Source: Tribonema minus
Taxonomy: Eukaryota > Sar > Xanthophyceae > Tribonematales > Tribonemataceae
Direction of reading: 5' to 3'
DNA: 64,000 nucleotides
Assembly: GCA_017506865.1 (NCBI GenBank)
Contig: JAFCMP010000520.1
Location: 620,001 to 684,000, forward strand
A program made the position numbers and the translations under genes. Below the pieces are notes generated by a model. That model saw only the letters and a program-made list of their open reading frames with translations. It did not search any database and was not told the origin of the DNA. This document shows positions 495-23,303 of this stretch, in pieces (the stretch's first letter is position 1; each line of letters starts with the position of its first letter).

Positions 495-782
495 CTGCTG
501 GAGCGGGGTCGGCAGCGGCGGGAGGGGCGTCGCCTGCGCCGCCGGCAGCAGCGCCGCCAGCAGCAGCGCCGCCGGCAGCAGCGCCGCCGCCGCCATCTGC
601 GCCGGAGCTCGATGTAGCAGGGGGGTCGGCGGCAGAGGTGGAGGGGGGGAGCTTACGCGCAGCAGCGGCAGCGGCAGCAGTGCTCAGGAGAGCGCGGTTG
701 GCAGCGGGGGGCGGGGGGGGGGGGCGTCCGGCAGGGGGCCGGCGATGGTCATGGAGGGTATGTAGTACGCGGTCTCCGCCAC
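495..782 (-). CDS. Tentative exon: end of CBM6 and low-complexity Ala/Gly/Ser linker
   Basis: After an acceptor at 783, phase 0 gives VAETAYYIPSMTIAGPLPDA, which would continue the CBM6 strand from exon 1706-1543. That frame meets a stop beyond a long run of C on the minus strand (about 710-724). The alternative frame on the far side of the run reads an Ala/Ser/Pro/Gly linker up to a GTGCGC donor at 494. The linker resembles the one before the membrane helix in the gene ending at 54810. Either the homopolymer length is misassembled or a splice site lies inside, for example GTAAGC near 656. The gene presumably continues left of the window. Confidence 0.35.
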
Positions 783-3700
783 CTGCCACCGGCGCATGTG
801 GCATTATTTAGATGTCAGATTTGTTTATGAGCAGTTGAGCTGATCGGCTGTGGGCAGGGCTCGCTCTGGAGATGTGCGGAACATGGCGGCGTGTGTGAGT
901 GCTCGTCGCCCACAGCGGGCAGGGTTTCTCGTGAACGGTACACATGCAGTACACTCTGTGCACGGTGTGCGTGCTGCTTGCACTCAAGACCCGGCGCAGA
1001 TTGTGCTTGCGGCCGTAACCCTTACCGTTACGCAACCGTTGTAAGCCTGACGTCTACCCATGCTCACGCATCGAAGGGTGCACTCACACTGATAGGATAC
1101 ATCTTTCATCGCTGTGCTTGTTGAAGTTGGCGTCGTAGCCGGTGTCAGGGTTAGGTCTTAGGCTAGGGTTAGACCGGAGTTCATGTCAGGGCTCAGGTCA
1201 GACGCAGGGTTACGCGCACTCACGCTGATTGCGTACTCCGACCACTCGCCCGGCTCTGTGAAGTTGATGTTGTAGCCATTGTCAGGCTAAGGTCTGAGGC
1301 TAGGGCTAGAACAAAGATCAGCTTAGGGATTGGGTCAGACGCAGGGTTACGCGCACTCACGCTGGTCGTGTACTTCAACCGCTCGCCCGACTCCGTGAAG
1401 TTGACGTTGCAGCCGCTGGTAGAGTTAGGGCAAGAGCTACTAGGTTACATTGGGTTCAGGTTGGGGATAGGGCAGGAGACAGGGTGACGCGCACTCACAT
1501 TGATGGTGTACTTCAACCGGACTTAAGGTTATGCGCACTCACGCTGATGGTGTACTTCAACCACTCGCCCGGCTCCGTGAAGTTGATGTCGTAGCCGTCG
1601 TTCGTGTCGGCGCTGCACACCATGCACTTCTCAATGTCCACGGCGGAGTCGGCGCGATACGTCGCGCCGCCGAAATTCTCGGGGGACAGGTCGAGGAAGC
1701 CGATTCCTGCGGCGAACGTCAACAACGAATTGCGACGACAGCTAATCAGGCGACAGGGGAGGTGGCGCTGCTAATTCTGCCGACAGAGGGGCTTTGTTGA
1801 GGGCTTGGTGACTCAATGTCCACGGCTAAGTCGGCGCGATACGTCGCGCCGCCGAAGTCAGGTCGAGGAAGCCGATGCCTGCGGTGAAAATCGAACAACA
1901 AATCACGGCGACAGCAAATCAGACGGAAAGTAGCGCTGCTCAGCTCCGACGACAGCAGGGCTTGATGAGGGCTTCAATCTACAAATACTGTTAGAAAGCC
2001 GATTCCTGCGGCGAGCGCGAAGAACGAATCGCGATGACAGCACATCAACTCCTATGACAGTAGGGCTTGATTAAGCGCTTAGTGACTTAGGGCTAGAGTG
2101 AGGAAGCCGATACCTGCGGCCAGCGCAGGCAGAATCCACGCCAACAGCATGAACATGTCGCACTCAAGGCAGCATCACAAACTGATCAAACGAAGAGGAC
2201 GCCTCGCCTTGTGCATGGACAAGTCACACTTAAGAGCGTTGTCACATTTAACTGAAAAATTATACAGAATTGCATTACGAACCTTCTCCTCGCATGTCAT
2301 ACGCGTCCACGCGTCTGTCAGACGCTTCACTGCGGAACGCGCGTAAGCCGCGCAGTTTGTTTCAGAGCACAAAAGCCACATCATGTGTAGCCCCACACTC
2401 AGTACCACAAAGCGCGCAGGAAGTGTTTGCAATTGGGCAGTCGCTGCTAAACGGCCAGACGTCAACAGCCAGATTTGTATTTCCATGCCTGTCTAACGAA
2501 TGCGGGCGGCGCCTCGCCGACAAGGCGACAAACAGCACCTACACATGGCCGTTGTGCTCTCAAACGAACGTGCGGCTGACGCGCATTCCGCAGTCAAGCG
2601 TCTGACAGGCGCTTGGACATGCATGACGTGCGAGGAAAATGTTCGTATTGCGATGTTGTCTGTTTGTTCAGTTAAAGTGTGACGATGTTCTGAAGCCTAA
2701 CTCGTCCACGCATAAGGCAAGGCGTCCCCCTTGTTTGATCAGTGTAAAAGCAAGTGAGGCATGGGGAGTGGCGCTGCTAACCTCTGAAGACAGTAGTGGC
2801 TCTAGTACGGGCTTGGCGACTGAGGGTTAGCGTAAGGGAACCGATGCCTGCAGCGAGAGCCACCAACAGATCGCGCCGACAGCGAACGAGACGTGTGAAG
2901 CGGCGCTGCTGGACTCTGGCGGCAGCAGGCGCTGGGCGGAGGGCTTGGTGAAGGCGTTGCACAACGGGCGACCAGCAGAGCTGGGCATTCCTGAGCTTCA
3001 CCTGGGGTTAGGGTTAGCGTTTGGTAGGAGTCGAGTACGGGTTGAGGTTAGCCGACCCACCGAGCGCTGTGCGTACGTGTCAGGAAGCCGATTTCTGACG
3101 GGGGCAAGGACGGTGCTTGGGCTGGCGGTAGTATGATGCTTTGACATACTGTCCACGAGACCTCAACCCATTGCTTTGCATGCTAGCCTACCAACTAGTG
3201 CTCTGCTGCAGCCATGTGCCTATCCTTGCTGGTCGGTGCCATGCGAGGGATGCCCTTGCTGGTCGATGCCATGCAAGGAGTACTGCACATGCTGCTGCCT
3301 CTCCCAGACTCTCGGCAAAATCTTCACACTCGTTAAGGCCTGTTCCCCTTTGACATACTCCCCACGAGACCCCGATCCAGTTCCTCCTCACTGTTCTCTT
3401 GCCTGAGGCCAAAAGCTCTAGCTTGTTTGGCTTTGCACCTTCAACTGCACACCTGCGCAACTTCCGCTGCAGAGGGCTGCGCGTTCGGACCCTGGGCATA
3501 CCCCAAACGAACTGATCCAAGAAATCAATGACAGTGAACAATGGTAAGGGGGGATGCTGCAGCTCTCGCCTGGGCCGCCGTCGTCGAAATCCTCTCAAGT
3601 ATGTATTACGGTTAGGGTTAGGGTTAGGGTTACGGTTAGGGTTAGGGTTGGGTTGTGGTTAGGGTTAGGGTTAGGGTTAGGATGCTGCAGTTGAAGTGGT

Positions 3701-6700
3701 TTTGTGTGCTGCGGTAGGTTGGTATGCTGCCACTCACCTGGGCCGCCGTCGTCGAAATCCTCTGCTTCGAACTTGCCCGCGAGACCCTGGCCAACTTTGC
3801 CGGCTGTTTTGACGGCCTGCACATGAGGAACATGAAGAGGTCGAGCATTGTGAGGTAGGCTCATAGCACGTGGCGACGCGAGGGGGGCAGTGGCTGAGCG
3901 TTGTGTTTGTGGATGACAGAATGCCCCTGATGGAGCACGTCTGAAGACGAAAGTCGCGTGCAGCGGTTGAGCGCTGCAGCAGTCACGCAGAAGCCGCACC
4001 GTTGGGACACAAATATTTCAGATGAAAGCAACGAGAACAACTAGCAAGGGCTCAGACCAGTCGAAGGGGTGCAAACATAGTCGGTTTAGCAGAGAAGCTG
4101 AGACGTGGTGTGTGAGTGTTGTGGGGTTGAACAAACCAACCCCGCGGGGAACGCATGGCGCAAAACGCGCGATGGGTTGCCGCACAATCTGCTTTGACAG
4201 CGTTGCACAGCAGTTGAGCACTGAGGCAGTCGCGGAGAAGCCGCACTGTTCGGATACAATTATTTCAGAGACAACAAAAAGATTGGCAGCGTTGCACAAC
4301 CCACCGAGGGGCCAGTGCCGGCGCTGAGAAAGCGCGGCGAGGCCTTGACCGCGTCTACGACGGTGACACAAGTTGCGTGTTGCAATTGAGCACTGTAGCA
4401 GTCACCGAGAAGAAGAGTACCGATGAGATACGTACAAATATTACAAATGAACAAATTATACTTTACAGCGTTGCATAACCCACCGAGGGGCAGGTGCCGG
4501 CTTGGAGGAAGCGAGGCGAGGCCTTGACGGCGTCGGCGCCCTTGCCCGCGACCGCCAGCAGCGCGGCGACGCCGTTGTCTGAGTGCGCGTACACCTGAGA
4601 GTAGGTATACGATAACGGCGGATACATACGTGAGTATGTAGGCAAACAAGCATGGTAGGTACACGCGTGCGTAGAAACACACTGCTGAGGTGGGAACTCA
4701 AGCGACGCGGTTGTCGGAGTGCGCGTACACCTGAGGGGTATGTATACAACAACGGCGGACACGTATGTGCATATCAAGGTAGCACTACGTGATGTCACCA
4801 GCACTGGCCGAGGGTACGCATACAAGATTAGCGGATGCATGCGCGCGTATGATGTAGGAACACGTGATGCCGCCACATGCATACGTGCGTACAAACATAC
4901 ACGGCATGTCACAGAGAAGTGAGACTGCATACAACCGCACATCCGATGTAAGGATATGACAACATGGGGGTACACACGTGCACATGCTCCTGAAACAGGT
5001 GCCTACAAATGGGGATACATGCGCATGTACATCTGAGGATGTACACACACATAAATACACCCTACCAGAAAACAATGCGGGAGGGCAGCTGCAGCTGCCG
5101 CAATATCCTTTTGCGGCAGCGGCGCAGTGCCGTGGTGCCTAGACTGCGAGGCCCGCTGGTGCACATCAGCTAACTCTCACCCTAACCCTAATTATAACCC
5201 TAGTCGCAGCGCTCAACGCCTGGTCAGGTCGCAGCACTCATACGCTTGGCCGCATTGCGGTCGTTCGTGTAACCATCACTGCTGCAGTAGCCACGCCCAA
5301 CACAGGCGGGGACGATGGCCTCTCACAGGACAGTGCAATAGACTCAACAAGCAATGCATACTGAACAGGGGTTGGGGGGGGGGGGGGGGGGGGCGTGGTT
5401 AGAGACAGCAGAACAGACACGACGGCACTGTCATTGGCTGCATCCCTTGCTCGTATGCCCGCACAGCGACGATACATCGTGACGGGCGTAAGCGCTGCTT
5501 TCGCACATCGCCTTATGGGCCACTCTGCCCGCCATAACCCCCCCCAGTGTACCGCAGCCAAAATGATGAACCGGCGAGAAACTCTATATGTGCACACATG
5601 TACTTCAATAACATACTTCAACATGACACACAGTGCGCACACTCACGTGGCAGTGCATCATCATGGCGCCGTTGAAGCGGTCCGTGCGGAAGCGCGTCGT
5701 GACGGGCACCGGGTGCGACACCGTGTCGTACCAGTCCCCCGGTTGGAACTGCATGCGTGGGCAAGCGAGATGACAACAAAAACCATTGTGAAAAACAAGT
5801 GCAGCACGGCTCAGGAGGTGTGCGTGAGCGTCGCCAGCGGCCATGTTCATAAAGTTGCGTTTGTAGCTAGTGCGCGCATTGAGAACTGACTGCGTCAGTT
5901 GTCGATCGTGCTGCGACCGCGTGGCTATTGAGGCAGCGGCAGACACAGCTCAGGGAGCATGCATGAGCGTCATCAGAGCAACCACGCGCGGATGGCCGTG
6001 ATTGTAGCTACTGCGTGTGACTTGAAGTGCGAGGCAGCGAGCGACCAGCGACAGTGGCGCGCGTGCAACTGCTTGTTTGCGCCGCCGGACAAGCGGCGGT
6101 AACACAGCTGAATTCGAAGTACGCTATAAAACAGGAGTGAGTGAAATATGATTTCGCATGTTCAGTTCGTTCACACAGCAGAGGAGCGGCTGTGCGGGCA
6201 CCCGACAGCTCGCAAGGACAGCGGCTTTCACGATGCGCAACATCAGATCGAGTGGGCGGCGTTGCTTTGCATGGCAGCTGCGGGGGCAGGCATACTGGCC
6301 CTAACCAGCCCTAACCCTATTTTCAGCACTAACTTCAACTTCAACCTCAGCACCCACCCAGCCGACTGGGGCTGGGGGCGGGCGCACTCACCCTAGCCCT
6401 CACCCTGACCCTTACCCTAATTGTAATGACAAAATCCAGTCAACAAAGGCGCTAACTTCAACCCTAAACCTAGCACTCACCCAGCCGGGGACGTCCGCGT
6501 AGTCCGTCAGCGGGCCCTGCAGCTGCATGTGGTTGACGTGCAGGTGCGCCGGGTGCTGCTGCAGGTTGTCCATCACAAACTCGTTGACGGTGTCCACCTG
6601 CGCCGCGCGTACACAGGAGCATGCACAACGCTCAGCAGATCAGCACAAGCGCCCACGCAGCGTGCCGCGTGATGGTGCAGTTTGTGCGAGGGGCCTGCTC

Positions 6701-9700
6701 TGGGAATCGCGGTGCAATGCGGAAGCGGCGCATCGCGATGGCGTGCGCTGTGAGTCGCTGCAGGCAGTGGTCCATTGCAAACGTTTGATGCTTGCTGACG
6801 CGCATCAGCTGAGCATCTGATGTATGCGCGCGCATGGGATGGCGAGCATGCATGGCATCTTGAGCACTGCCTCTGATTCCCACCCCCACCTTAGGGTTAG
6901 GGTTGGGGTTAAGCTACCTTCCTCCACCTCCTCGATGCCACTGCTGCATGACACAGTGAGCGCGCTAGCCCTCTGCAATTGCTGGTGCGCGAAAAACCGT
7001 TGCATGTGCAGTGAGCATGCTCACACAAATGCATGGCAGACTACACATCTGAGTGTGAACATCTGAGTGTGAACATCTGAGTGTGAACGAGCACAAATCC
7101 CCGGAGACCGAATCACTCACATCAAAGGTGAAAAGCGGCGGCTTGTAGCCCTCGGGCAGCAGCACGCCGTTGACGGCGCCGCGCAGCTCAATGTCCACGG
7201 ACTGCGCCGGCGCTGAGCGCTGCAGATCGGTCAGGTAGTGGGGCCTGCAAGGGGGGGGGGGGCGCATGGGACCAATAATACCTCTCAGCAGGGGCCACAT
7301 TAATCTAGTTCGGGGTACATACTGATGAGTTGCAGACTCTGTGCTCGATGTTTCTAGACTGCGCTGGTGCTGAGCGCTGCAGATCAGTCAGGTAGTGGGG
7401 CCTGAGGGGGGGGGGGGGGGGGGCGACAAAGGCTTTGAGCACGGGCCAGGTCAGCGGCTACATGCTAATGAATTGCAGACTCTGTGCACGACGTTTGTAG
7501 CATTTGTGTCCACAGACTGCGCTGGCGCTGAGTGCTGCAGATCGGTCAAATAGCGAGGCCTGCAGGTGGCACAGACACAATAAATTCTCTCAGCAGGAGC
7601 CATGGTGAGTGTCCTTCAATGAGTAGCAGACTCTGTCAAGTGCTCACAGCGCCTATGTCCACGGACTGTGCAGGTGCTGCGCGCTGCAGATCAGTCAGGT
7701 AATGCGGCCTGAGCGGGGGGGCATGGCACAGACACAAGAAATGCTTTTAGCATGGGCCATGGCGAGCGTATTTTGATGAGTTGCAGACGCTGTTCTGTGC
7801 TTATGGCGCTCATGTCCACGGACTGGGTGGTGCTGCGCGCTGCAGATCGGTCAGGTGGCGCGGCCTGCGGGGCGGTAGTGGTAGAGGCGCAACGAGCGCT
7901 TTCAGCTGCGGTCATGCTTGAAGTTTACGTGACTTTCCAAGCTTCAAAGCGGTGCCCATTCTGCTACGGTCGCTGGCGCTGAAGTCCTCGGGGCGCGCGG
8001 ATGCTGAGCGCTGCGTTTCCGCCACGTAGTGCGGCCTGCGCAAGCAGCACACCCGCCCCTGCTGTACCTGCGGAGGTCAAAACCCGCTCCGGCCACCTCA
8101 ATGTGCAACCCTTTTGCGAGGGCGAAAGCCCTCGCCCGGGAGGCGACAAACAAGGACCTTCGCGGGTGAGCCCGTTGCCTTTGACACCAATCACAAAGGC
8201 AACGGGCACACCTTTGTTTATCGCCTCCCGGAGGAGGGCTTCTGGGCGTTGCGGTTTGAGGTGGCCGGAGCGGGCTCGACCCCCGCAGGTACAGCAGCCC
8301 CAGCACGAGTGTGCATACTTGAAGTTAGCGCACGCATCCGCGGTCCCCTGTCGATGAGGTTGTGTACGCGCAGCAGCGCGCACTGCTGCTGGCTGAGCGT
8401 CACCGCACGGAGGGAGCGTGACTGCGACAAAACCAATGCACACCATGCCCCTGTGCATCCAACTGCATGTACTGCTCAGGCGACGCCGCCTCTCGCGGGC
8501 CGTACGCAGCGAGTGCTGCGGGCAATGACACGGTGACCCTTAAAGTTTACACCTGCCAGGCAAAACTTCAACAGTGACGCACCGGCAGGGCACCCAGGTC
8601 GGCAGGTCGTCCTCCAGGGGCTGGTCGGAGGGCAGGACGTTGATGGCGCCGATGGTGTTGAAGTTCTCCACGCCAAGCGTAGAGAGCTGCATGGAGATGG
8701 GACCGGGCGCGTTGCAGCGCAGGACGAGGTCGACGCGCGACGCGATGGAGAAGAAGAGCAGGTCGTCCTGCAGCATGCGCGGAGCGCTGCGCGCGGAGAA
8801 ATGCGGCGCACGCGGACAGGAGCACATGTGAGGTAGAATAGATTCTGCGCGTTCGCACTGCAAGCACCAGCGCAGAATGAGGTCCATGCGCGACACGATG
8901 GAGAAGAAGAGCAGGTCGTCCTGCAGCATGTGCGGGACGCTGCGCCGAGAGAAAGTGCAGCGCTTGTGCACGCAATGACGCCATTAGAGGCGGGGGAGGG
9001 GTCATGGCTCACGCGATGGATGCGAGTAGTATGAGGCTTGGGGGCAGCATCTGACGGTGGACGACAACGCAGAAGAAGAGCAGGTTGTCCTGCAGCATGC
9101 GCGGAGCACTGCGCCCGGACGGGAGCACGCGTGCGCAGGAGCACGTCAGAGATGTGAATGAGGGTGTCAACTTGCAAAAAACATGACCATCACGCTCCGC
9201 CAGAGATCAGAGCTGAAGCGTTGAAATGAGGGCTGGACAAAAGAGAGGCGATTGGGACAGGTGCAGGTGGTCCTGCAGCATGCGCGGACTGCAACTTCAA
9301 GTTCAACTTGGTAATTTGAGGATGACGCACCTGTTGAGGTAGACGCCGTCGAGCGCCAGCAGCCCCATCATGCAGCCAGTGGGCATGCCCTTGGCGTTCA
9401 CGAAGCGCATCTTCACGTTGGACTGCATAGGGGGCGGGGATCGCTGTCATAGTCAGAGCCAGAGTCAGAGTAGATGCCCACGTGAGCGAGCGCGGGCCAT
9501 TGCAATTGGAAGGCAGGTGCGAAGTCGGTGCTGAACACTGCTGCAGCGCCGTGAAAAACATCTAATTTGCATCAGCAAATGGCGCGGTGCCGTCGACAAA
9601 TGCTGCACTGCTTGACGCACTCGAGAGTGTTTTGTTCAGTTGCACAAGTCTGGAAATTAAGCCTAATTCAACACAGACATGGCGCGAGCGTGTAGACGTA

Positions 9701-15700: not shown

Positions 15701-18700
15701 CACAGTCAACGATGATGTTATGACAATGGACGCTTGAGGTTATTACCTGACAGATGTCGAGGCGGTCGTTCTGAATGAGCCAGCGCTGGCGTGCGCGCTC
15801 GTCGCCGACGCCGTCCCACGGCGTGCCCTGCACGCACGGCCAGCCCGCGTTGAACGGCTGCGCGGTGTAGTCCTGCTTGAGGTCCACCCTGCGGCAGAAG
15901 TTGCACAGGCAGCAGCGATCAGCAACCAAGATGTACCAGTATGTGACATTTCAAAACACCTCAGCAGTAGTAGTACTTGAGCGAATGTTGTACTTTGAAG
16001 TGTTTGACATGTACATCCAAAGTAGTCGTGCTTGAAGTCGACCCTGCGGTAGCAGCAGCGATCAGCACATGGCACCGGCGCTACTTTGCGGAAGGCGCAC
16101 TTCGCGAGTGCACGCATACAGAAGCAATCAGCCGCGTGCGGGGGTCGTGCACGCACAACAGCCAGCCCACATGAAATGGCTACACAGCGTAGTCGTGCTT
16201 GAGGCCGACCCTGCCGAAGCAGTCGCACAAGCAGCAGCGATCAACACAGTTGAAATTGGGCTGGGGCTAGCTTACGATTGCGCGTGTTACCGCGAGGGCC
16301 GTTTTTGAAGTGGTAGGCAGTTGTAGCACAGCTTCAAGCATCATCTTCCTTGAAAGTATGCAGCTGTCTGTGAGTGCCCCCCCCCCTCCCCCGCTCCCCC
16401 CCTTCCCCCTCCCCCCCCTGTATGCTCAGCTGGCCCGTGTTACAAGGCTACACGGCACGGGTAAAGCGGAGCGTTTGTGATGCAGGGGCTCCAAAGCGTG
16501 TAGGTTGTGGGTGCTTACACAGCACAGCAGGGGAGAGCATAATCATTGTGATAAGGGGCATCAAAGCGTGTAGGCTGCGGGTGCTGACACCAGCACAGCG
16601 GGCATGCCAGACACTTTGCAAGCCTAGCCTGCTCTGACGTGACAGTGCTCAACACGACAGTGATCAGCAGCCGTGACGAGCGACGTGCAGAGGGAACCAT
16701 TCACTTCTTCTCTGCTGTCGTTGTTGCTTGGCCCGAAAACGGTGCACAGGTATGATGGTGAATCTAGCCTTGCAGTAGAATCACTAACTTCGAGAGGTTG
16801 GGTTGATGTCAACCACATTGAAATACCTGTTTACTTCTATTACCACAGGTTTTCAAGGGATGCGGGAGGTGGTACCTGTAATGCGCTCTTTCTGAGGCTT
16901 GAAGTTGGCAACAAAAACTGCAAGTGCAAGTACACATACAGTATACCAACAATCCTCACTGCCTTTCAACGATCTCAAATGTACCTCTCGAAGTATGTGG
17001 TACTTCAAAAGTAAATACTTCGTATTACTGTACCTGTAGATGCGCTCTGTCTGAGGCTCGTCGCCGGAGCCAACGTCGGTGACCCACAGGATGTCATCCG
17101 CGGCGATGAACGAGCGGAAGGGGTTGCGGAACCCCTTGCCCCAGACTGTGTAGTCAACGCCCTCCACCAGCGGATCGTTCTGAGCGTAGCCACCTCTGCG
17201 GCATTGGGCAGGCGGGGGGGGGGGGGAGATGGGGGGGGGGGATGAGGTGCAACTGAAATAAAAGAGTTGAACTTTGTGCAGGCGCAGAGTATGTATATGT
17301 ATGCAGTGTCATCATCCACAAACTCTGCAATATGGCGCGCCAGTTCACATACTTCGAAGCAGTACAATGCGTGCGGCTTCTGCACAGCACTTGCGCGTTT
17401 GGAGATGTTGCGGTTACGCAAGCGCTGTGACCGTCACTGCAGACCGACGCGAGCCACTGGGCAACAGGCTAGGCACAGAACAAGCCCATACTCTAATAGC
17501 ACAAAGAACACGAGTCATGAATAAGCGTGCTCCCTCCGAATTGCTGCGCACTGCGATGGTTGCTGGGACTGAAACATCCAGAAACACCATCAGGTGCTTC
17601 TTCTTGAGAGCAGCGTGACTGAACGCAGGGCTTCACGACTGGGCACTGGAACTTCTGAAACCACGATCCAGTACACTCCAGAGCAGCGCAACTGACGACG
17701 CACGGCACTCTCACGCACGTGGTGCGGTAGGACTCGGGAGCGATGCGCAGCCCCGTGGTCAATCAAATCTGTCTATGCACTCAAACAGTGCCCCAAGGCC
17801 GCGTATTCAGAACGAGGTGAGGACGCGCGAGCAGTAGTCAGAAGTGGCAATGCGCAGCACTCTCACGCACCTGGTGCGATAGGACTCGGGGGCGATGCGC
17901 AGCCCCATGCATATTACCAGCTATGCAGTCAGGAAGTGCTGCATGACATGAGTGCTCGGAAGTGAACCAAGGACGCGCGAGCAGTAGTCAGAAGTGGCAG
18001 TGCGCAGCGCTCTCGCGCACCTGGTGCGGTAGGACTCGGGGGCGATGCGCAGGCCCTTGCCGTGCACAAAGTCGTCACGCTGCGAGCGGAAGCAGCCCTG
18101 GCCGGGGGTCTTGGTGACGTCGTAGCACGCGTCGTCCTGCGCAAGGGGCAGCAAACAATATACTTAGCGATTATACTAATGTACCTCAACGCATGTATAT
18201 GCTTCAACTTCAAGGCTAATCCGAACCCCAAACCTGACCCTAACCCTGACTCTAACTCTAACCCTGTTCCTAACCCTAACCCTGTTCCTGACCCTCACCC
18301 TGACCCTAACCCTAATTGTAATACCAGCCCTAAACCCCTGTATGTATGGATGGCATAGCGTGCGCCGTCTTGCGCAAGCGGCAGTGAGCATACCTGGGGC
18401 TGGCATTCTGAAGTGTCATGCAAAAAGCGATCGCCGTAACAGAAACTGCGCTCGTGCTCGCGCCAGCTCTGGCATGCCGGGACATCATTGAACACGATTG
18501 ACGCATTCCTCGCCTAATCCTGACTCTGACGCCTACCGTAACCCTAACCCTAACCCTAAACCTGACCCCAATTCTAATCCTAACCCTGGTTGGGGGTCCA
18601 TTGTGGTGCCGTGACACGCATTGTTGCTGCACACATCATTGACGCATGTGCTCGAACGCATCTATGTTGGCCTACCAGCCAGTACTCTACGGCAGCTGTG

Positions 18701-21700
18701 TGCCCACTAGTAGTACTGCTTGCCAGTGCCAAGCAACAAGCGACAAGCGATGCAGACGCTGCTGCCTCTCCCAGACTTTTGGCACAAAAAAAATTCACAT
18801 TCCCGGGCTCGTGTTGGCACAGAGAACATGCCAGAAATGTCAGGCCAAGACACCAGGTGCAGGTGGCGACTGATGGACGAAATGTCAATGAAGCGCGCAA
18901 CGCTCACCGCCTGGATGCCGTAGTCGAAGATGGTAAAGTGGGAGTGCTCGCCGTACAGGATGGGCGATTAATAGTCATCAATCATCCGATGAAAAACAAC
19001 CATATGATGATTCATGAATAAAATGTCAATGAAGCGCACGGCGCTCACCGCCTGGATGCCGTAGTCGAAGATGGCAAACTGGGAGTGCTCGCCGTACAGT
19101 ACGATCATCTCCTCTGCAAAAGTGCAGCAGCGATCAGCAGCTGAGCGTTGAGGCAGCTAGAGTGTCGTCGTTAAGCATACCAGAGTCATGGCGCAGCGAC
19201 ATTTGTAAAACATGCACTGGTTTAAACTGCGACACTGTGTGCTGCGCTTGACATTTTGTCAAGTAACAAGGACTGCTGAGTTGGCGAAACCAGTTAGCAA
19301 TGTAAACATACAGCAGGGCTTACGGACACTGAGAGCTTGCCATTTGCTAGTTCTTCAAAATTACTTCCAGAAGTAGGACAAGTCATTCAGCGCACGCAGA
19401 CAGTGCAAGGCACGCAGCAAAACCTGTATCGCACACTGACCACGACTCTCGCACGCAAAGGCGCCACGTACACACACGACACTCATACTTCAACTTTGAG
19501 GAACTTCAAGGAGCACCGCAGCGAAACGCCACCGACAGTGACGCACTGGTGCTCGTGAACATCATGACACTCCTACTTCAACTTCGCGGAACTTAGCGAA
19601 GCGCCGGCGGTGACGCACCGGTGCTGGTGAACATGACGGTGCCGACGCCGTGCGTCGCGGAACCCCCGCAGCCGTCGACCAGCAGCACCGCGTCCTCCTT
19701 TGCGGTGCCCGCTTCAAGGTCAAGCACCAGCCGCGACACAACGCTCAGCTTCTCGCAGTTCTTGCCGGGCTCGCAGTTCTGGTCGCCCCAGTCGGCGGGG
19801 CGCGTCGCGCCGACCTTGGGGTTGGGCCAGTCCGTGTCGCTCATGGCGTGCGCGACGCCGGGCTGCGCCATCCAGAAGATGTAGGCTGCGCGGCGGCGGC
19901 GGCGGCGGCGGCAGCGGCGGCAGCGGCAGCGGCGGCGGCGGTGGCGGCGGCGGCGGCAGCGGCGGCGGCGGTGGCGGCGGCGGTGGCGGCAGCGGCGGCA
20001 GCGTGGGCGGTGGCAGCAGCGGCGGCGGTGGCAGCGGCAGCAGTGGCGGCGGTAGCGGCAGCAACGGCGGCAGCAGCGGCGGCGGCAGCAGCAGCAGAGA
20101 GGATCGGTAAAGCAATGAGAATGTGCGTGTTAAGATGATGTGCGCACGTACGCATATGGCACACCGCCGCCAGTGCGCACTTCAACATTGTGTGTGGGCC
20201 GGTCGGCGTGTCGCGCGGCGCACACCGCACCCGCGCTGCGCCGCCACAGCGCGTAGGCATTACCAGTGCTATCCTGAGGGCTGACTTCGAGGTGCATCAT
20301 GGAGTGCTGCAAAAGCGCGCGAAGGTCGCCCGCGCCGGTGTGCCACCTGCACCAGGAAAGCAAGTTTGACGGGGGTCGTTCAAGATCTGAAGCGCGGCAT
20401 CAGCACAGAATATCATGTAGCAGGAGCACCATACGTGGGCCACCCGCATCGCTCGCGACCTGCGCTGCGCGCGGTCAATGCAGCTCTGCTGAGCCCCCCC
20501 TCCCCCCCCCCCAACGCGCCCCCCCCTTCACGCTGTACACTGGTGCGCTCAACAATAAAAAAACAGCACCAAATGGGCCAACAATCGACACAAAAAGGGC
20601 TGATCTGCATATGGAGATGAGCTAGGCTTGCACACCTCACCAAATCAACATGCTCCCACAGCAAAATTTGCAGCAGAAGTACTCGGATGAAGATTTTGTA
20701 TTTGAAAACTTTGTTGTTAATTTGCGAGGCATGCCAACTCACCAAAGTTGTTGCCGCCTTTGCCGAACTGCGGGTCAAAGCCGAAACCCACCAGGCCGTG
20801 GTCATCGGCGGAGTACACCTGAGCGCATACATACATTCGCAGGCATGCGCAATCAATTGACACTGCAGGGCTATCAAGGTGCTTCAAGTGATGAAGTGCA
20901 TTCATGAAGTTGTTGCTCAATGCACTCAACACAGGCTGTTCGGCACACATGGCAACATCAAGATGATGGAAAGTGCATGCAGTGCTGAAACACTGATGGT
21001 ACAAACAGGCCAACGTTGTACTCTTACAGCCTATGCTATGCTCCGCTCGACCCCAAAGCCATGTTCGGAACTGGGTCCACGGCTGCAATAATCCTGACCC
21101 TAACCCTGACGCTTGTGCAGAGCTATGTTACGTGCTTGCTGCGTGTGTGCCATAGCTTGAAGTTGTGATCTGTGGTGCAATAAGCATTTTGGTTTTATCT
21201 GTGTTTTTTCCCCAGCGTATGAACGGATGTTAATACGTGATGTGCGTACTGTCTTATAGTCTATGCTAGAACTATATAATCTGCTACTGTTGTAAAAGCG
21301 TGCTTTGACAATTTGGACGTGCATGTGATGAGCGTCCTTTTAACAGGAATAGAAACAGAACATTCGAGAGCAGTATCTGTCAACATGCGTTTCAGCACCA
21401 AACACGAAGAACACGTCACCAATCTCATGACGACGCGCGGGGAGTCCGCAGTTACAGCAGCGGCAGTTGTACGCATCAGCGCAGCCAAGAAGGTGAAGCT
21501 GGCGGTCGTGGACCTCACAGGCGACGATTGATGGCACAGAGTGCTACGACCGCCAGCTTCGCCTCCTTGGCAGGGCTGACGCGCGCAACTGCAGCAGCTG
21601 CAGCTGCGGACCTCTCGCGCTTCATCAGGTTGCTGACGTGCTCTTCGTGTCAGGGTTGTGGTGAATGTTTTCCCGGTACCGCCTGGGGCGTCAAGCATTG

Positions 21701-23303
21701 TTAAATCTACCGCCGCGGTCTGCTGCACGGAGTCAACTACGGCACCGTATGCCGCACACTGTTCATCTGTGATGATGAACAGCATGAGGAGGTCATGCAG
21801 GCTCGGGACGAAGCAGCGCGCCTGCCGTGCGGAAACGCGACACCACTGCACACGACACAACAGCAATTGTGACTGTAACTGTAACCGACTAACTGCAGCT
21901 AACTAACTGTGACGCCGTACCTTCTGCTCGATGTTGAGCAATGTCACGTAGTCGTCGGCCTCCACGTCGATGGTGTCGTACAGGCGGATCTCGCCGTACT
22001 TGTGTATGGTGATGACCTGCGCGGTCGTGGGCGAGAACCTGAGCGCCGTGGCCTTCTCCTCGCCGGAGAACGTCCAGTGCTGCTGCACGACGAGGTTCAC
22101 CTGCGCGCGGGGCACAGACAGCAAATGTGTGATGTTTCAGTCCCGAATTGGCGCGAAACGTTAAGCGAGTGCACCGCAGCGTGTGACGTTGCACGCGCCG
22201 GAGCATGGTTTTTTCGCAGACTCACCCTGGGGGTCCGGGTTCGGGTTGGGTTAGGCTTGAGTTAGGGTTAGGTTTGGCGTAGGGGTAGGGTCAAGATTAG
22301 GGTTGGGGGCACGATGAGGTTGATCTGCGCGTGCGCACGCAGCAAATGCGTGATGTCTGAGTGCCAGGTCTGGCGTGGAAATGAAGCGAGTGCGCTGCAG
22401 ATGCATCACAGAGCGTCATTGTGCACAGCAAAGGGGGCATGCGTGACATTTGAGTGCCGGGCCTGGCGTGAAACAAGAAGTTGGTGCACTGCGCGCGCAT
22501 CACAAGGCGTTGCTGCGATCACACACTCGTGGATGCGCTGATGGACTCAGAGTTGCACTGTTTAGCGCTGGGCAAAGAAGTTACGTCATGATTGTATATG
22601 CCGTCAGTGTAGTTGTGTTCGGTGCACGGTGGCACATGGCAACAGCGTCACAAAGATGTCAAGGAGGCAGCCCTTGGATAGATTGCCTTTTATAAGTGGG
22701 CATGACTGCTGCCACAAAGCGGCAGTGCTTCACACATTGAGAGATGTCCCCGCCAGACACAGCTGGAGCTGCTCAATGAAGCGTCAAAGCCGAACACATG
22801 GCGCGAGCAGCACCAGCCGTTCTGTCTTATGCGTGGACATGTTGCAGACGTACAAGTATAGCTCGTAGCACTGGAAGACACCGGAAAATTGATGTATACA
22901 TTGGTATGTAGAAACACGACGATCACAGTGCTGTTCCGCATGTGTGCTGACCGGACCTGACCGGACCGAGTGCACAGAGCTCGCACAAGCAGTGTCCCAA
23001 GCCTGGGTTTCTGAAGCGCCATGACCTGCACACCACAGCTTTGAGAGGTCCAAGTAAAATTGCTTGAAAGAGACACATATGGCATGCAAAACTCACATCT
23101 TTATTGGCGACCACTGGATCGTTGCCCAGAAAATCATAGACGCCGCCAACAGCCTTCTCGTCGAGCAGCTCACGGCGGCGATTGTGTTGTTGGCCATTTC
23201 CGCCGATCTGAACCTCAGCGGATTTGAACGCAGTGCAGGCTAAGAGTAGAAGTATTAGCGAGAAACATGCGGGCCTGGAGGCACCGCGCTGTAGCGCGCG
23301 CAT
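495..23303 (-). CDS. Secreted glucose/sorbosone dehydrogenase - multicopper oxidase - CBM6 fusion protein (3' end probably beyond left edge)
   Basis: Gene rebuilt on the minus strand. Exons run 23303-23097, 22100-21921, 20818-20743, 19885-19619, 19113-19049, 18136-18021, 17195-17034, 15888-15747, 15112-14912, 14542-14350, 13902-13769, 13219-13124, 12421-12202, 11670-11531, about 11270-11055, 10153-10019, 9422-9331, 8767-8583, 7244-7121, 6597-6481, 5748-5647, 4594-4484, 3816-3738, 1706-1543 and, tentatively, 782-495. Nearly all junctions are GT-AG and keep phase, giving about 1,170 residues before the linker. The ATG at 23303 opens a signal peptide with the hydrophobic core FSLILLLLACTAF. Domain order is dehydrogenase beta-propeller (about residues 70-580), multicopper oxidase (about 585-1090), CBM6-like module (about 1100 on). 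Two problems remain: the 9422-9331 to 8767-8583 junction breaks phase, and the exon after 11531 has uncertain edges. Known families: GSDH/AA12-like, AA1-like and CBM6. The fusion as one transcript is inferred from strand, order and phase. Confidence 0.8.
1100..1520 (-). repeat. Donor-side copies of exon 1706-1543
   Basis: Three to four truncated copies of the exon's 3' end with its donor and adjacent intron lie downstream of the true exon, at about 1100-1150, 1200-1285, 1343-1425 and 1486-1519. Each carries the GCGCACTCACGCTG-type donor edge on the plus strand, and they are separated by GTTAGGGTTAG-like sequence. None has a matching acceptor end, so they should be removed with the intron. Confidence 0.8.
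1543..3816 (-). CDS. CBM6-like carbohydrate-binding module exons of the fusion
   Basis: Exon 3816-3738 ends with KFEAEDFDDGGPG and exon 1706-1543 continues in phase with the CBM6 signatures FGGATYRADSAVDIE and GYDINFTEPGEWLKYTIS. These match the IEAE-x-FD, YR-x-D-x-VDI and GEWLEYTV landmarks of CBM family 6. The family binds plant and algal glycan chains through a beta-sandwich. The module follows directly after the oxidase, with no linker visible. The second half of the module is not securely found: the next phase-compatible stretch is at 782 and reads VAETAYYIPSMTIAGPLPDA. Exon 1706-1543 has the most heavily duplicated edges in the window. Confidence 0.8.
1810..3100 (-). repeat. Acceptor-side copies of exon 1706-1543
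   Basis: Upstream of the true exon are truncated copies of its 5' end with its acceptor. A long copy lies at about 1815-1890, with shorter ones at about 1990-2012, 2098-2122, 2833-2855 and 3078-3098. The common core on the plus strand is GAGGAAGCCGATTCCTGCGG, and the copies keep the CTGCGG acceptor edge. Together with the donor-side copies this is the densest edge-duplication set in the window. Confidence 0.75.
3141..3371. repeat. Dispersed ~170-bp intronic repeat, copy 1
   Basis: The core at about 3179-3348 starts CTAGCCTACC and contains CTGCTGCCTCTCCCAGACTC near its other end. It holds a ~26-bp internal repeat (CTTGCTGGTCG...). Related copies lie at 18655-18800 and 58200-58372. This copy is flanked by near-identical ~23-bp direct repeats beginning TTTGACATACT (3141-3163 and 3349-3371), which look like target-site or local duplications. 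The family is unknown, with no tRNA-like promoter or coding domain seen. Confidence 0.7.
3551..3735 (-). repeat. Donor-side copy of exon 3816-3738 with TTAGGG array
   Basis: A truncated copy of the exon end encoding EDFDDGGPG lies at about 3551-3601. It is separated from the true exon by a degenerate telomere-type array (GTTAGGG units, about 3606-3680). The donor of the copy reads GCGAGA instead of GTGAGT on the minus strand, so it is probably dead. Confidence 0.8.
4280..4745 (-). repeat. Edge copies of the terminal oxidase exon 4594-4484
   Basis: A donor-side copy lies at about 4282-4365 and an acceptor-side copy at about 4687-4745, so both edges of this exon (which carries part of the last copper motif) are duplicated on opposite sides. 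The copies are too diverged and truncated to replace the exon. Confidence 0.65.
4484..13902 (-). CDS. Multicopper oxidase domains (middle exons of the fusion)
   Basis: All four copper-binding motifs of a laccase or bilirubin-oxidase-like enzyme are present. NMHLHGLHIS lies in 12421-12202 and GLHWYHPHHHG in 11670-11531. QQHPAHLHVNHMQL lies in 6597-6481. MMMHCH ends exon 5748-5647 and continues as VYAHSDNG at the start of 4594-4484. Together these supply the ten Cys/His ligands expected for the type 1, 2 and 3 coppers. The first cupredoxin opens with LNGMLPGPLMRME (13219-13124). Middle-domain pieces such as AHYLINGC and GQWTRLRMLHYAHV come from 10153-10019. The residue at the usual type 1 axial position appears to be Val rather than Met, Leu or Phe. 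Exon 13902-13769 bridges from the dehydrogenase. The family oxidises substrates and reduces O2 to water; the substrate cannot be read from sequence. Confidence 0.88.
7350..8040 (-). repeat. Five acceptor-side copies of exon 7244-7121
   Basis: Copies of the first ~50 nt of the exon plus the acceptor occur at about 7353-7400, 7508-7560, 7657-7712, 7811-7866 and 7993-8035, with a spacing near 150-180 bp. The shared plus-strand core is GCTGAGCGCTGCAGATCGGT, ending in GGCCTGC. All lie upstream of the true exon in transcription order. Confidence 0.85.
8880..9290 (-). repeat. Acceptor-side copies of exon 8767-8583
   Basis: Copies of the 5' exon edge, with plus-strand core GAGAAGAAGAGCAGGTCGTC next to CTGCAGCATGCGCGG, occur at about 8880-8940 and 9060-9115. 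A shorter one lies near 9255-9290. They fill the intron upstream of the exon. Confidence 0.8.
9810..9865 (-). repeat. Donor-side copy of exon 10153-10019
   Basis: A roughly 50-nt copy of the exon's last codons with the CTCACCAC donor edge lies downstream of the true exon. It keeps a usable-looking GTGAGC donor on the minus strand but has no acceptor end. Confidence 0.75.
12008..12112 (-). repeat. Donor-side copy of exon 12421-12202
   Basis: About 100 nt of the exon end, encoding the stretch after the HLHG copper motif, is repeated downstream at roughly 90 percent identity by eye. The copy stops just short of the copper motif. It is then followed by AACTTCAACTT-type sequence. Confidence 0.8.
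14205..15602 (-). repeat. Edge copies around three dehydrogenase exons (14542-14350, 15112-14912, 15888-15747)
   Basis: A donor-side copy of 14542-14350 lies at about 14207-14275. Acceptor-side copies of 15112-14912 lie at about 15182-15253 and 15298-15375. Donor-side copies of 15888-15747 lie at about 15420-15470 and 15553-15602. A (TGAG)n run at 15124-15172 reads (CTCA)n on the transcribed strand and serves as the pyrimidine-rich tract before the acceptor of 15112-14912. Confidence 0.8.
14350..23303 (-). CDS. Signal peptide plus glucose/sorbosone dehydrogenase-like beta-propeller (first ten exons of the fusion)
   Basis: These ten exons encode the secretion signal and a soluble quinoprotein-type sugar dehydrogenase propeller. 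Family landmarks appear in order: an opening blade with RFSPTTAQVITIHKYGEIRL (22100-21921), GLVGFGFDPQFG (20818-20743), a lineage-specific Cys-containing segment (19885-19619), VHGKGLRIAPESY (18136-18021), which aligns with the family's His-Gly-Gly-x-Leu stretch and may carry the catalytic His, GFRNPFRSF followed by WVTDVGSGDEPQTERIY (17195-17034), NAGWPCVQG (15888-15747), SGAYITASP (15112-14912) and FLYITDYEFARTIRVY (14542-14350). Known members use PQQ to oxidise sugars. PQQ use here is inferred, since I cannot confirm every cofactor contact. A non-enzymatic propeller such as the hedgehog-interacting-protein type is the main alternative. Confidence 0.82.
16020..16220 (-). repeat. Acceptor-side copies of exon 15888-15747
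   Basis: Two short copies of the exon's first ~20 nt (encoding VDLK-like residues) with the acceptor and adjoining intron lie at about 16025-16065 and 16185-16235. They are embedded in a longer repeated intron segment containing AGCAGCAGCGATCA. Confidence 0.65.
17700..17910 (-). repeat. Donor-side copies of exon 18136-18021
   Basis: Two copies of the exon end encoding GLRIAPESYRT with its donor lie at about 17706-17756 and 17868-17910, about 150 bp apart and downstream of the true exon. The repeat includes about 40 bp of intron after the donor. Confidence 0.85.
18226..18330. repeat. Degenerate CCCTAA telomere-like array
   Basis: Runs of CCTAACCCTGACTCTAACCC-type units fill this intron segment. 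A second cluster follows at about 18535-18590. They are interstitial, not a chromosome end, because gene sequence continues on both sides. Confidence 0.85.
18650..18805. repeat. Dispersed ~170-bp intronic repeat, copy 2
   Basis: This diverged copy shares GCCTACCAGCCAGTACTCTA and TGCTGCCTCTCCCAGACTTT with the copies at 3141-3371 and 58150-58410. Its centre is shortened and the far end runs into an A-rich stretch. I did not find flanking direct repeats here. Confidence 0.6.
18876..18960 (-). repeat. Donor-side copy of exon 19113-19049
   Basis: Nearly the whole 65-nt exon end, encoding EHSxFxIFDYGIQA, and its GTGAGC donor are repeated 145 bp downstream. The flanking AATGTCAATGAAGCGC is duplicated as well. 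Identity is about 90 percent by eye, so this copy is among the younger ones. Confidence 0.85.
19887..20100. repeat. GGC/GCA triplet-repeat tract
   Basis: A compound (GGCGGCAGC)n tract of about 210 bp lies directly upstream of the acceptor of exon 19885-19619. It reads as poly-Ala, poly-Gly or poly-Pro/Leu in all frames, which explains the long open frames here. I see no evidence that it is translated. Confidence 0.9.
21400..21655. repeat. Inverted repeat (~115-bp arms) beside a helicase fragment
   Basis: The plus-strand segment at about 21400-21518 and the minus-strand segment at about 21655-21540 are inverted copies. They share the cores AGGTGAAGCTGGCGGTCGT and CACGAAGAACACGTCACC. Both arms have a related open frame: one ends VRISAAKKVKLAVVDLTGDD, and the other contains ARVSPAKEAKLAVV. 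Only about 20 bp separates the arms, so the region could fold back. This is probably debris of the mobile element represented by the helicase fragment next to it. Confidence 0.65.
21655..21785 (-). mobile_element. Pif1/Helitron-type helicase fragment (Walker A region)
   Basis: The minus-strand frame contains TDEQCAAYGAVVDSV, then LDAPGGTGKTFT, the N-terminal motif and Walker A box typical of Pif1-like helicases and of Helitron Rep-helicases. Only about 45 residues are recognisable. No Rep domain, downstream helicase motifs or Helitron ends were found. The fragment lies in the second intron of the dehydrogenase-oxidase gene on the same strand. It is most likely a remnant of a rolling-circle DNA transposon. 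A captured piece of a cellular PIF1 gene is the alternative. Confidence 0.7.
22092..22500 (-). repeat. Acceptor-side copies of exon 22100-21921
   Basis: Upstream of the exon a ~105-210-bp unit recurs at about 22092-22195, 22311-22400 and 22425-22500. The first repeated copy still includes the exon edge GCACGATGAGGTT. The others keep only intron sequence around GCAAATGCGTGATGT. TTAGGG-like units lie between copies 1 and 2. Confidence 0.65.

What the first reader, a model, noticed from the sequence alone, without database searches (positions are those of the whole stretch)
495..23303. Single gene fusing a quinoprotein-type sugar dehydrogenase, a multicopper oxidase and a CBM6
Seen: on one strand, phase-consistent exons run from a signal peptide through GSDH propeller motifs (GFRNPFR, DVGSGDEPQTERIY, NAGWPCVQG), straight into all four copper motifs (HLHG, HPHHHG, HPAHLH, HCHVYAH) and then CBM6 motifs. 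Known: GSDH/AA12 enzymes oxidise sugars and pass electrons to acceptors; multicopper oxidases (AA1-like) reduce O2 to water; CBM6 binds glycans. Inference: a glycan-targeted polypeptide coupling sugar oxidation to oxygen reduction, in effect a one-chain redox relay. I am not aware of this domain order being described.
Basis: partly seen in the sequence, partly recalled or inferred. Interest (0 to 1): 0.9.

Follow-up and report, generated by a model that had tools for sequence, protein, structure and literature searches.

The report
Algal sugar-dehydrogenase-like/copper-oxidase fusion protein
One large gene of a photosynthetic eukaryote appears to encode a secreted protein that joins a sugar-dehydrogenase-like propeller, a multicopper oxidase and a sugar-binding module in a single chain, and the same genome holds a family of such fusions; it may be a self-contained machine that oxidises sugars with oxygen, but its chemistry is untested.

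Summary
On the minus strand 25 exons (23303-684) join by 24 GT-AG introns in one frame: signal peptide, GSDH-superfamily propeller, multicopper oxidase (MCO) with all copper motifs, start of a CBM6. The 'two genes' reading is strongly disfavoured: in four paralogs (C155, C268, C290, C457) one uninterrupted exon runs from the propeller's end through a linker into the MCO start, and 17 of 19 propeller loci found in this genome have an MCO match downstream on the same strand. The exons that could be tested (S1-M2) are under purifying selection (dN/dS 0.17 and 0.29, no stops). The gene probably does not end at 495: CBM6-like exons continue beyond window position 1.

The propeller is GSDH-related by profile-profile comparison (99.6%, E 1.7e-24) but under Pfam's cut-off. 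Catalytic His and one Arg of quinoprotein glucose dehydrogenase are kept in 4 of 4; Lys377, Arg406 and Arg408, which hold PQQ there, in 0 of 4. So 'quinoprotein' and 'redox relay' remain hypotheses. No description of this domain order turned up in the open-licence papers searched. New variant of a known kind.

The parts
23097..23303 (-). exon S1: ATG, likely signal peptide (core FSLILLLLAC), start of mature protein
21921..22100 (-). exon S2: propeller
   Evidence: 95% identical exon in tandem copy
20743..20818 (-). exon S3: propeller, DDHGL motif
19619..19885 (-). exon S4: propeller, ATHG motif with the His aligned to catalytic His144 of sGDH
19049..19113 (-). exon S5: propeller
18021..18136 (-). 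exon S6: propeller
17034..17195 (-). exon S7: propeller, GFRNPFR (Arg/Asn aligned to R228/N229) and DVGSGDEPQTERIY
15747..15888 (-). exon S8: propeller, NAGWPCVQG
14912..15112 (-). exon S9: propeller
14350..14542 (-). exon S10: end of propeller
   Evidence: fused to M1 in one exon in paralog C155
13769..13902 (-). exon M1: linker and start of MCO
13124..13219 (-). exon M2: MCO, NGMLPGPLMRME
12202..12421 (-). exon M3: MCO, copper motif HLHG
11531..11670 (-). exon M4: MCO, copper motif WYHPHHHG
11055..11117 (-). exon M5: MCO (acceptor corrected by comparison with paralogs)
10019..10153 (-). exon M6: MCO
9331..9422 (-). exon M7: MCO
8583..8786 (-). exon M8: MCO
7121..7244 (-). exon M9: MCO
6481..6597 (-). 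exon M10: MCO, copper motif HPAHLH
5647..5748 (-). exon M11: MCO, HCH
4484..4594 (-). exon M12: MCO end, VYAHSDNGV completing HCHxxxH
3738..3816 (-). exon C1: start of CBM6 (FEAEDFDDGG)
1543..1706 (-). exon C2: CBM6 core (DGYDINFTEPGEWLKYT)
684..782 (-). exon C3: CBM6 (VAETAYYIPSMTIAG), C-run, in-frame TGA; the tandem copy's exon is open here

Best explanation
A secreted, modular oxidoreductase in one chain: signal peptide, GSDH-superfamily propeller, short (in relatives Pro/Thr-rich) linker, multicopper oxidase with all four copper motifs, and one or more CBM6-type modules. Proposed mechanism: CBM6 holds the enzyme on a polysaccharide (own cell covering, mucilage or food glycan); the propeller oxidises a sugar or sugar-like alcohol at the conserved His/Arg site using a quinone or another bound cofactor; electrons reach the type-1 copper and reduce O2 to water at the trinuclear centre, so that no H2O2 is released. 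SHOWN by sequence: one frame, domain order, copper motifs, purifying selection on the exons tested, gene family. INFERRED: secretion, glycan target, catalysis by the propeller, cofactor identity, direct electron transfer.
For: One frame through 25 exons. Junction within one exon in four paralogs. 17 of 19 propeller clusters followed by an MCO match on the same strand. Complete model of paralog C457: 1315 aa followed by TAG, with signal-peptide-like start, propeller, linker, MCO and whole CBM6; a single 616-aa ORF holds the MCO from its second copper motif on plus the CBM6. Propeller against GSDH: hhalign 99.6%, E 1.7e-24; profile hits sGDH in the PDB at 4.3e-7. Residues aligned to H144 and R228 kept in 4 of 4. 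MCO Pfam hits 1.8e-10 and 1.3e-8, over cut-off (run on an earlier model with a longer exon M5). The type-1 axial position, read by eye, is Val, Val, Leu in three fusions and Met in the MCO-only protein; a non-Met axial residue goes with high-potential laccases (recalled). dN/dS 0.17 and 0.29.
Against: Residues aligned to sGDH K377, R406, R408 and Q246 are replaced in 4 of 4 and N229 is kept in 2 of 4, so PQQ binding as in sGDH is not supported. No structure was predicted, so the distance between sites is unknown. An MCO-CBM6 protein without a propeller exists in the same genome (C179, 806-aa ORF), and 11 of 29 MCO clusters lie on contigs without a propeller hit, so the MCO can work alone. The focal copy's last exon has an apparent frame break. 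Exons M3-C3 were not tested for selection. No expression evidence.
Confidence: 0.4

Rival explanations
1. One chain, but the propeller is a non-catalytic binding or scaffolding domain (as in hedgehog-interacting protein); the MCO acts alone on phenols, metals (Fe, Mn, Cu) or other donors, and CBM6 merely anchors it.
For: Loss of the residues aligned to K377, R406, R408 and Q246 in 4 of 4; weak similarity to HHIP structures (E 0.23); an MCO-CBM6 protein without propeller exists.
Against: The His and Arg aligned to H144 and R228 of sGDH are invariant in 4 of 4, as is an Asp-His pair at the Q76-N77 positions; the profile is nearer to sGDH (4.3e-7) than to HHIP (0.23).
Confidence: 0.35
2. One chain, two independent activities: sugar oxidation with an external acceptor, and oxidation of a different donor by the MCO, without electron transfer between domains (proximity or co-secretion only).
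For: Pro/Thr-rich linkers in paralogs do not enforce a fixed geometry.
Against: Family-wide retention of the order (17 of 19) favours a joint function, but does not prove electron transfer.
Confidence: 0.2
3. Two neighbouring genes (propeller gene and MCO gene) misread as one.
For: The frame upstream of exon M1 is open in the focal copy and holds an ATG in the 14349-13903 intron; in the 80 bacterial and archaeal MCO loci examined the two are not in one ORF, and in one archaeon they are neighbouring genes.
Against: Junction inside one exon in four paralogs; the frame just upstream of M1 is interrupted in the tandem copy, and the alternative N-terminus has a hydrophobic peak of 1.75 against 2.45-3.15 for the five presumed signal peptides; splice sites kept in the tandem copy (11 of 11 acceptors and 11 of 11 donors that could be read).
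Confidence: 0.04
4. The focal copy is a decaying pseudogene of the family.
For: In-frame TGA after a C-run in exon C3 where the tandem copy is open; MCO exon M10 lacks about eight residues that paralogs have; many decayed partial exon copies in introns.
Against: No stop in exons S1-C2, all 24 introns with GT-AG; dN/dS 0.17 against the tandem copy over the 12 exons covered. A homopolymer indel is a common assembly error (general knowledge).
Confidence: 0.1

Closest known systems
Soluble quinoprotein glucose dehydrogenase (sGDH, GdhB) of Acinetobacter calcoaceticus (PDB 1c9u, 5min)
   Same: GSDH-superfamily propeller; profile match over nearly the whole domain; residues aligned to His144 and Arg228 kept
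   Different: K377, R406, R408 and Q246 not kept; sGDH is a stand-alone enzyme with no oxidase or CBM (recalled)
AA12 PQQ-dependent pyranose dehydrogenase of Coprinopsis cinerea (CcPDH; PMC6881789, passages read)
   Same: Eukaryotic multi-domain enzyme: PQQ propeller plus an electron-transfer domain (AA8 cytochrome b); by the passages read it too lacks sGDH K377, Y343 and W346 but keeps the catalytic His
   Different: Its partner is a cytochrome, not an O2-reducing MCO; no AA12 structure is named among the 12 PDB hits of the propeller profile
Bacterial laccases / CueO (PDB 2xu9, 1kv7)
   Same: MCO domains and copper motifs
   Different: Stand-alone enzymes without propeller or CBM6; the 80 bacterial/archaeal MCO loci kept are 23-32% identical in the best segment
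Hedgehog-interacting protein (HHIP)
   Same: Eukaryotic, secreted, GSDH-like propeller (recalled)
   Different: Much weaker match (E 0.23); HHIP is a non-enzymatic binder (recalled)

Membership tests
GSDH (Pfam PF07995) | score at or over the curated cut-off (25 bits) | tested here: not met
   Focal propeller: no hit. Paralog pieces: one hit at E 0.15. Best, C457 model: 24.7 bits, just below.
GSDH superfamily (fold-level relation) | significant profile match over most of the propeller to accepted GSDH proteins | tested here: met
   hhalign of 4 propellers against 17 sequences found with PF07995: 99.6%, E 1.7e-24, columns 16-472 of 489 against 3-316 of 322; hmmsearch against PDB sGDH 4.3e-7. 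NCBIfam TIGR02604 (a related propeller) 4.3e-5 for C22, far below its cut-off.
PQQ-dependent sGDH-type enzyme | catalytic His144 and Arg228 | tested here: met
   4 of 4 sequences (correspondence read from the alignments).
PQQ-dependent sGDH-type enzyme | K377, R406, R408, Q246 (PQQ contacts; K377 and R408 by PMC6881789 passages, the others recalled) | tested here: not met
   0 of 4 for each. N229: 2 of 4.
PQQ-dependent sGDH-type enzyme | PQQ bound, sugar oxidised | not testable with these tools
   needs protein
CAZy AA12 | similarity to the CcPDH catalytic domain | tested here: inconclusive
   No AA12 structure named among 12 PDB hits at E up to 10; no CAZy library at hand.
Multicopper oxidase (Cu-oxidase; AA1-like) | Pfam Cu-oxidase domains over cut-off | tested here: met
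   PF07732 41.4 bits (cut-off 21) and PF07731 35.2 bits (20.4) in the focal protein, earlier model with longer M5; the middle domain PF00394 is not listed.
Multicopper oxidase (Cu-oxidase; AA1-like) | four copper-ligand motifs HxHG, HxH, HPxHxH, HCHxxxH | tested here: met
   First three in 5 of 5 sequences, the last in the 4 of 5 whose model reaches it; C22 is cut by the piece fetched.
Multicopper oxidase (Cu-oxidase; AA1-like) | O2 reduction | not testable with these tools
   needs protein
CBM6 (Pfam PF03422) | score over cut-off (28.9 bits) | tested here: inconclusive
   Focal 14.1 bits in the whole protein and 18.2 alone, below; paralog C457 module 28.9, at the cut-off; a module beyond the window gave no Pfam hit but matches a CBM6 structure (2y8k) at 1e-7.
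CBM6 (Pfam PF03422) | glycan binding | not testable with these tools
   needs protein
HHIP-type propeller | closer to HHIP than to enzymatic GSDH | tested here: not met
   E 0.23 against 4.3e-7 for sGDH.

The most novel reading that the evidence does not exclude
A natural, single-chain sugar:oxygen oxidoreductase made of a GSDH-type dehydrogenase wired to a multicopper oxidase and targeted to glycans, i.e. an enzymatic 'biofuel-cell' relay that oxidises sugars at the expense of O2 with water, not peroxide, as product, and whose dehydrogenase site binds its cofactor in a way different from known quinoproteins; expanded to a family of a dozen or so members in one alga.
Probability: 0.3. Interest if true: 0.88.

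Novelty: new variant of a known kind. Interest (0 to 1): 0.68.

Why it matters
Each part is known, but a dehydrogenase-like propeller of this superfamily fused to an O2-reducing copper oxidase is, as far as the searches here reach, undescribed. Known dehydrogenases of the kind pass electrons to separate acceptors or to a fused cytochrome; engineers pair sugar dehydrogenases with laccases by hand for bioelectrodes (recalled). A natural one-chain version, kept at 17 loci of one assembly, would show how cells solve the electron hand-over and would point to an unknown way in which phytoplankton modify their own or other organisms' polysaccharides. It also offers a test of whether eukaryotic GSDH-like propellers without the classical PQQ contacts are enzymes.

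Tried and rejected
Two-gene reading: tested by paralog exons, tandem-copy frame and hydrophobicity, rejected. A longer exon M5 (11243-11055) was first used (and so in the queries of 19, 24 and 32) and dropped because the four MCO relatives aligned lack the extra stretch. Single-sequence searches of the focal propeller gave no relevant hit (Pfam 22, PDB 23); a profile of four family members was needed. PF07995 against the own genome gave 9 matches, none at the 19 propeller clusters. Relatives of the fusion in viral contigs (94 pattern stretches) and bacterial/archaeal genomes (26): none confirmed. These scans use two short peptide patterns each, so absence is weak evidence, and no eukaryote collection was searched. 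The Nitrosocosmicus MCO/GSDH neighbourhood may be chance: 23 GSDH matches in that genome. Organism: pieces of plastid genes show a photosynthetic eukaryote; the lineage was not settled; a look-up of one PDB code in papers led nowhere. Papers on MCOs in haptophytes (6 listed; passages of PMC11685980) report cupredoxin domains in coccoliths but, in the passages seen, no such fusion. Structure prediction was not tried: as I read its rule it takes no spliced proteins and no proteins of these loci.

Full report
Setting. The window is G000:C517:620001-684000 of a 158-Mb assembly in 554 contigs. Fragments of the plastid psaA/psaB family are scattered over its contigs (11 matches; one 56-aa piece matches PsaA chains at 1e-29), so it is a photosynthetic eukaryote. 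The lineage was not settled.

Gene model. Reading the minus strand with three-frame translations and fixing borders by script gives 25 exons from 23303 to 684. All 24 introns are GT-AG, the phases match, and the joined frame has 1162 codons before the last TGA. Exon M5 was shortened after comparison with paralogs; still used the longer version.

Is it one gene? Own-genome searches with the propeller (76 matches), MCO (84) and CBM6 part (14) revealed a family. Clustering the places typed gives 19 propeller and 29 MCO clusters; 17 of 19 propeller clusters have an MCO cluster downstream on the same strand, 0.26-7.3 kb between listed start coordinates. The two misses: C154 has no MCO hit; on C162 the propeller hits start as late as 135675 of 137589 bases, so the contig ends. 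Eleven MCO clusters lie on contigs without a propeller hit. Some contigs may be haplotype copies of each other (equal or near-equal scores: C193/C343/C549; C29/C452; perhaps C155), so my estimate of distinct fusion genes is nearer 13. The lists are lower bounds, as the tool says.

The decisive point is that four paralogs have no intron at the junction. Single ORFs of 188 aa (C268, L041:1148-585), 230 aa (C457, L042:3883-4572), 118 aa (C290, L044:2818-2465) and 324 aa (C155, in L033) run from the end of the propeller (in C290 only its last strand) through a linker into the MCO start, as far as GMIPGPLMRME, YMVSAPVIRMK and GMVPGPVIRMQ in the first three and the M1 equivalent in C155. In C457 one 616-aa ORF holds the MCO from its second copper motif on plus the whole CBM6, and the model ends at TAG after 1315 aa. 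A signal peptide-MCO-CBM6 protein without propeller also exists (C179, 806-aa ORF, L045; a hit with an open frame of equal length on C90), so the propeller was either added to or lost from an MCO-CBM6 protein.

Selection. Against the tandem copy (C517, pieces within 703724-717611) dN/dS is 0.17 over the 12 exons S1-M2 that the fetched pieces hold; against C155 it is 0.29 over 10 exons (S1 and S6 gave no match in the pieces). No aligned codon is a stop. In the tandem copy 11 of 11 acceptors and 11 of 11 readable donors keep AG/GT, the S10 donor and M1 acceptor included. In C155, with positions carried over without gaps, 8 of 10 acceptors and 6 of 10 donors do; two of the misses are the S10/M1 border, where C155 has no intron, and two donors read GC. 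S1 is only 46% identical in the tandem copy and is in the total. Exons M3-C3 were not in the fetched pieces and were not tested.

What the domains are. MCO: Pfam Cu-oxidase_3 and Cu-oxidase_2 over cut-off, PDB laccases and CueO (best 3.4e-14), copper motifs HLHG, WYHPHHHG, HPAHLH, HCHVYAH. Pfam's middle domain PF00394 is not listed. Propeller: the focal sequence alone gives no relevant hit; a profile of four family members finds Acinetobacter sGDH at 4.3e-7, then E. coli GSDH (0.037) and HHIP (0.23), and matches an alignment of 17 PF07995 sequences with 99.6% probability. Those 17 are of the 30 loci returned from 19 genomes. CBM6: 18.2 bits for the focal piece, under the 28.9 cut-off; 28.9 in C457.

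Active site. With the correspondence read from the alignments, residues aligned to His144 and Arg228 of sGDH are conserved in 4 of 4, Asn229 in 2 of 4 (Gln in the other two), whereas Asp143, Gln246, Lys377, Arg406 and Arg408 are kept in none, and Gln76-Asn77 is Asp-His in 4 of 4. That His144 is catalytic and Lys377 and Arg408 contact PQQ is from passages of PMC6881789; the roles of Arg228, Asn229, Gln246 and Arg406 are recalled. The same passages say that the fungal AA12 enzyme has no counterpart of Lys377, Tyr343 and Trp346 and binds PQQ differently, so the losses do not exclude PQQ; but 'quinoprotein' is not established here.

Extent. The last in-window exon C3 holds a C-run followed by an in-frame TGA. 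In the tandem copy the same exon stays open for about 262 codons to the end of the piece fetched, through an Asp/Ser/His-rich and poly-Ser stretch. Beyond window position 1 the same strand continues with CBM6-like pieces with AG and GT at or within 3 bases of their ends, at about -205..-351, -1532..-1708, -2316..-2405, -3388..-3588, -3970..-4116, -6245..-6400 and -6836..-7036; the last two, joined, match a CBM6 structure at 1e-7 though Pfam lists nothing. Whether they belong to this transcript is not shown.

Distribution and novelty. No relative of the fusion was confirmed in bacterial/archaeal genomes or viral contigs with the patterns used. In the ORFs of the 80 bacterial/archaeal MCO loci kept, the propeller profile hit one ORF, a separate GSDH gene (PF07995 5.4e-44) 3' of the MCO gene of an archaeon. 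Paper searches: GSDH with MCO and CBM6, 0 papers; MCO with quinoprotein, fusion and domain architecture, 0 (73); laccase with glucose dehydrogenase and natural fusion, 1 review (74); sorbosone dehydrogenase with MCO, 3 (78); the Pfam pair, 0 (79); MCO with CBM6, 26, of which 10 were listed (89). For these I saw listings only, and nothing in them names this order; 16 of the 26 were not listed. Eukaryote proteomes could not be searched.

Mechanism. The simplest functional reading is a glycan-anchored enzyme in which sugar oxidation is coupled to O2 reduction to water. The invariant His/Arg pair, the intact copper motifs and the kept fusion speak for it; the missing PQQ contacts and unknown geometry speak against certainty. 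A non-catalytic propeller on a working MCO is nearly as likely.

Noticed in passing
window 1-24000, minus strand introns (e.g. 7401-7357, 7559-7507, 7708-7655, 7864-7808, 8035-7984 beside exon M9): Introns hold partial copies of the neighbouring exon: 22 copies of 11 of 25 exons, all beside the parent exon (three low-complexity matches of C3 left out); 21 of 22 reach an exon edge within 4 bases and 18 of these 21 keep the splice dinucleotide. Looks like intron growth by tandem duplication across splice sites, leaving decoy sites.
   Followed up: partly
L160 (C517:686201-687800), tandem copy of exon C3: Long Asp/Ser/His-rich and poly-Ser stretch inside the CBM6-region exon of the tandem copy, open for about 262 codons to the end of the piece; possible metal- or mineral-binding insert.
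   Followed up: no
L045:394-2811 (C179) and C90:1030290: Single-exon 806-aa signal peptide-MCO-CBM6 protein without propeller; a hit with an open frame of the same length on a second contig.
   Followed up: partly
L033 (C155:126920-130117): A close paralog lacks the S10/M1 intron that the focal gene has; within the focal intron lies what looks by eye like a decayed copy of the end of S10, suggesting gain of this intron by exon-edge duplication.
   Followed up: partly
L084:4761-7927: Ca. Nitrosocosmicus: MCO and GSDH genes side by side on one strand; the genome has 23 GSDH matches.
   Followed up: partly
G000:C97:91196-91414 and 100007-100165: A PF07995 GSDH match and a CBM6-part match 8.6 kb downstream on the same strand, with no MCO hit on that contig: perhaps another GSDH-CBM6 arrangement.
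   Followed up: no
window introns, e.g. about 3680-3605 and 11370-11200: Telomere-like CCCTAA-type repeats inside introns.
   Followed up: no
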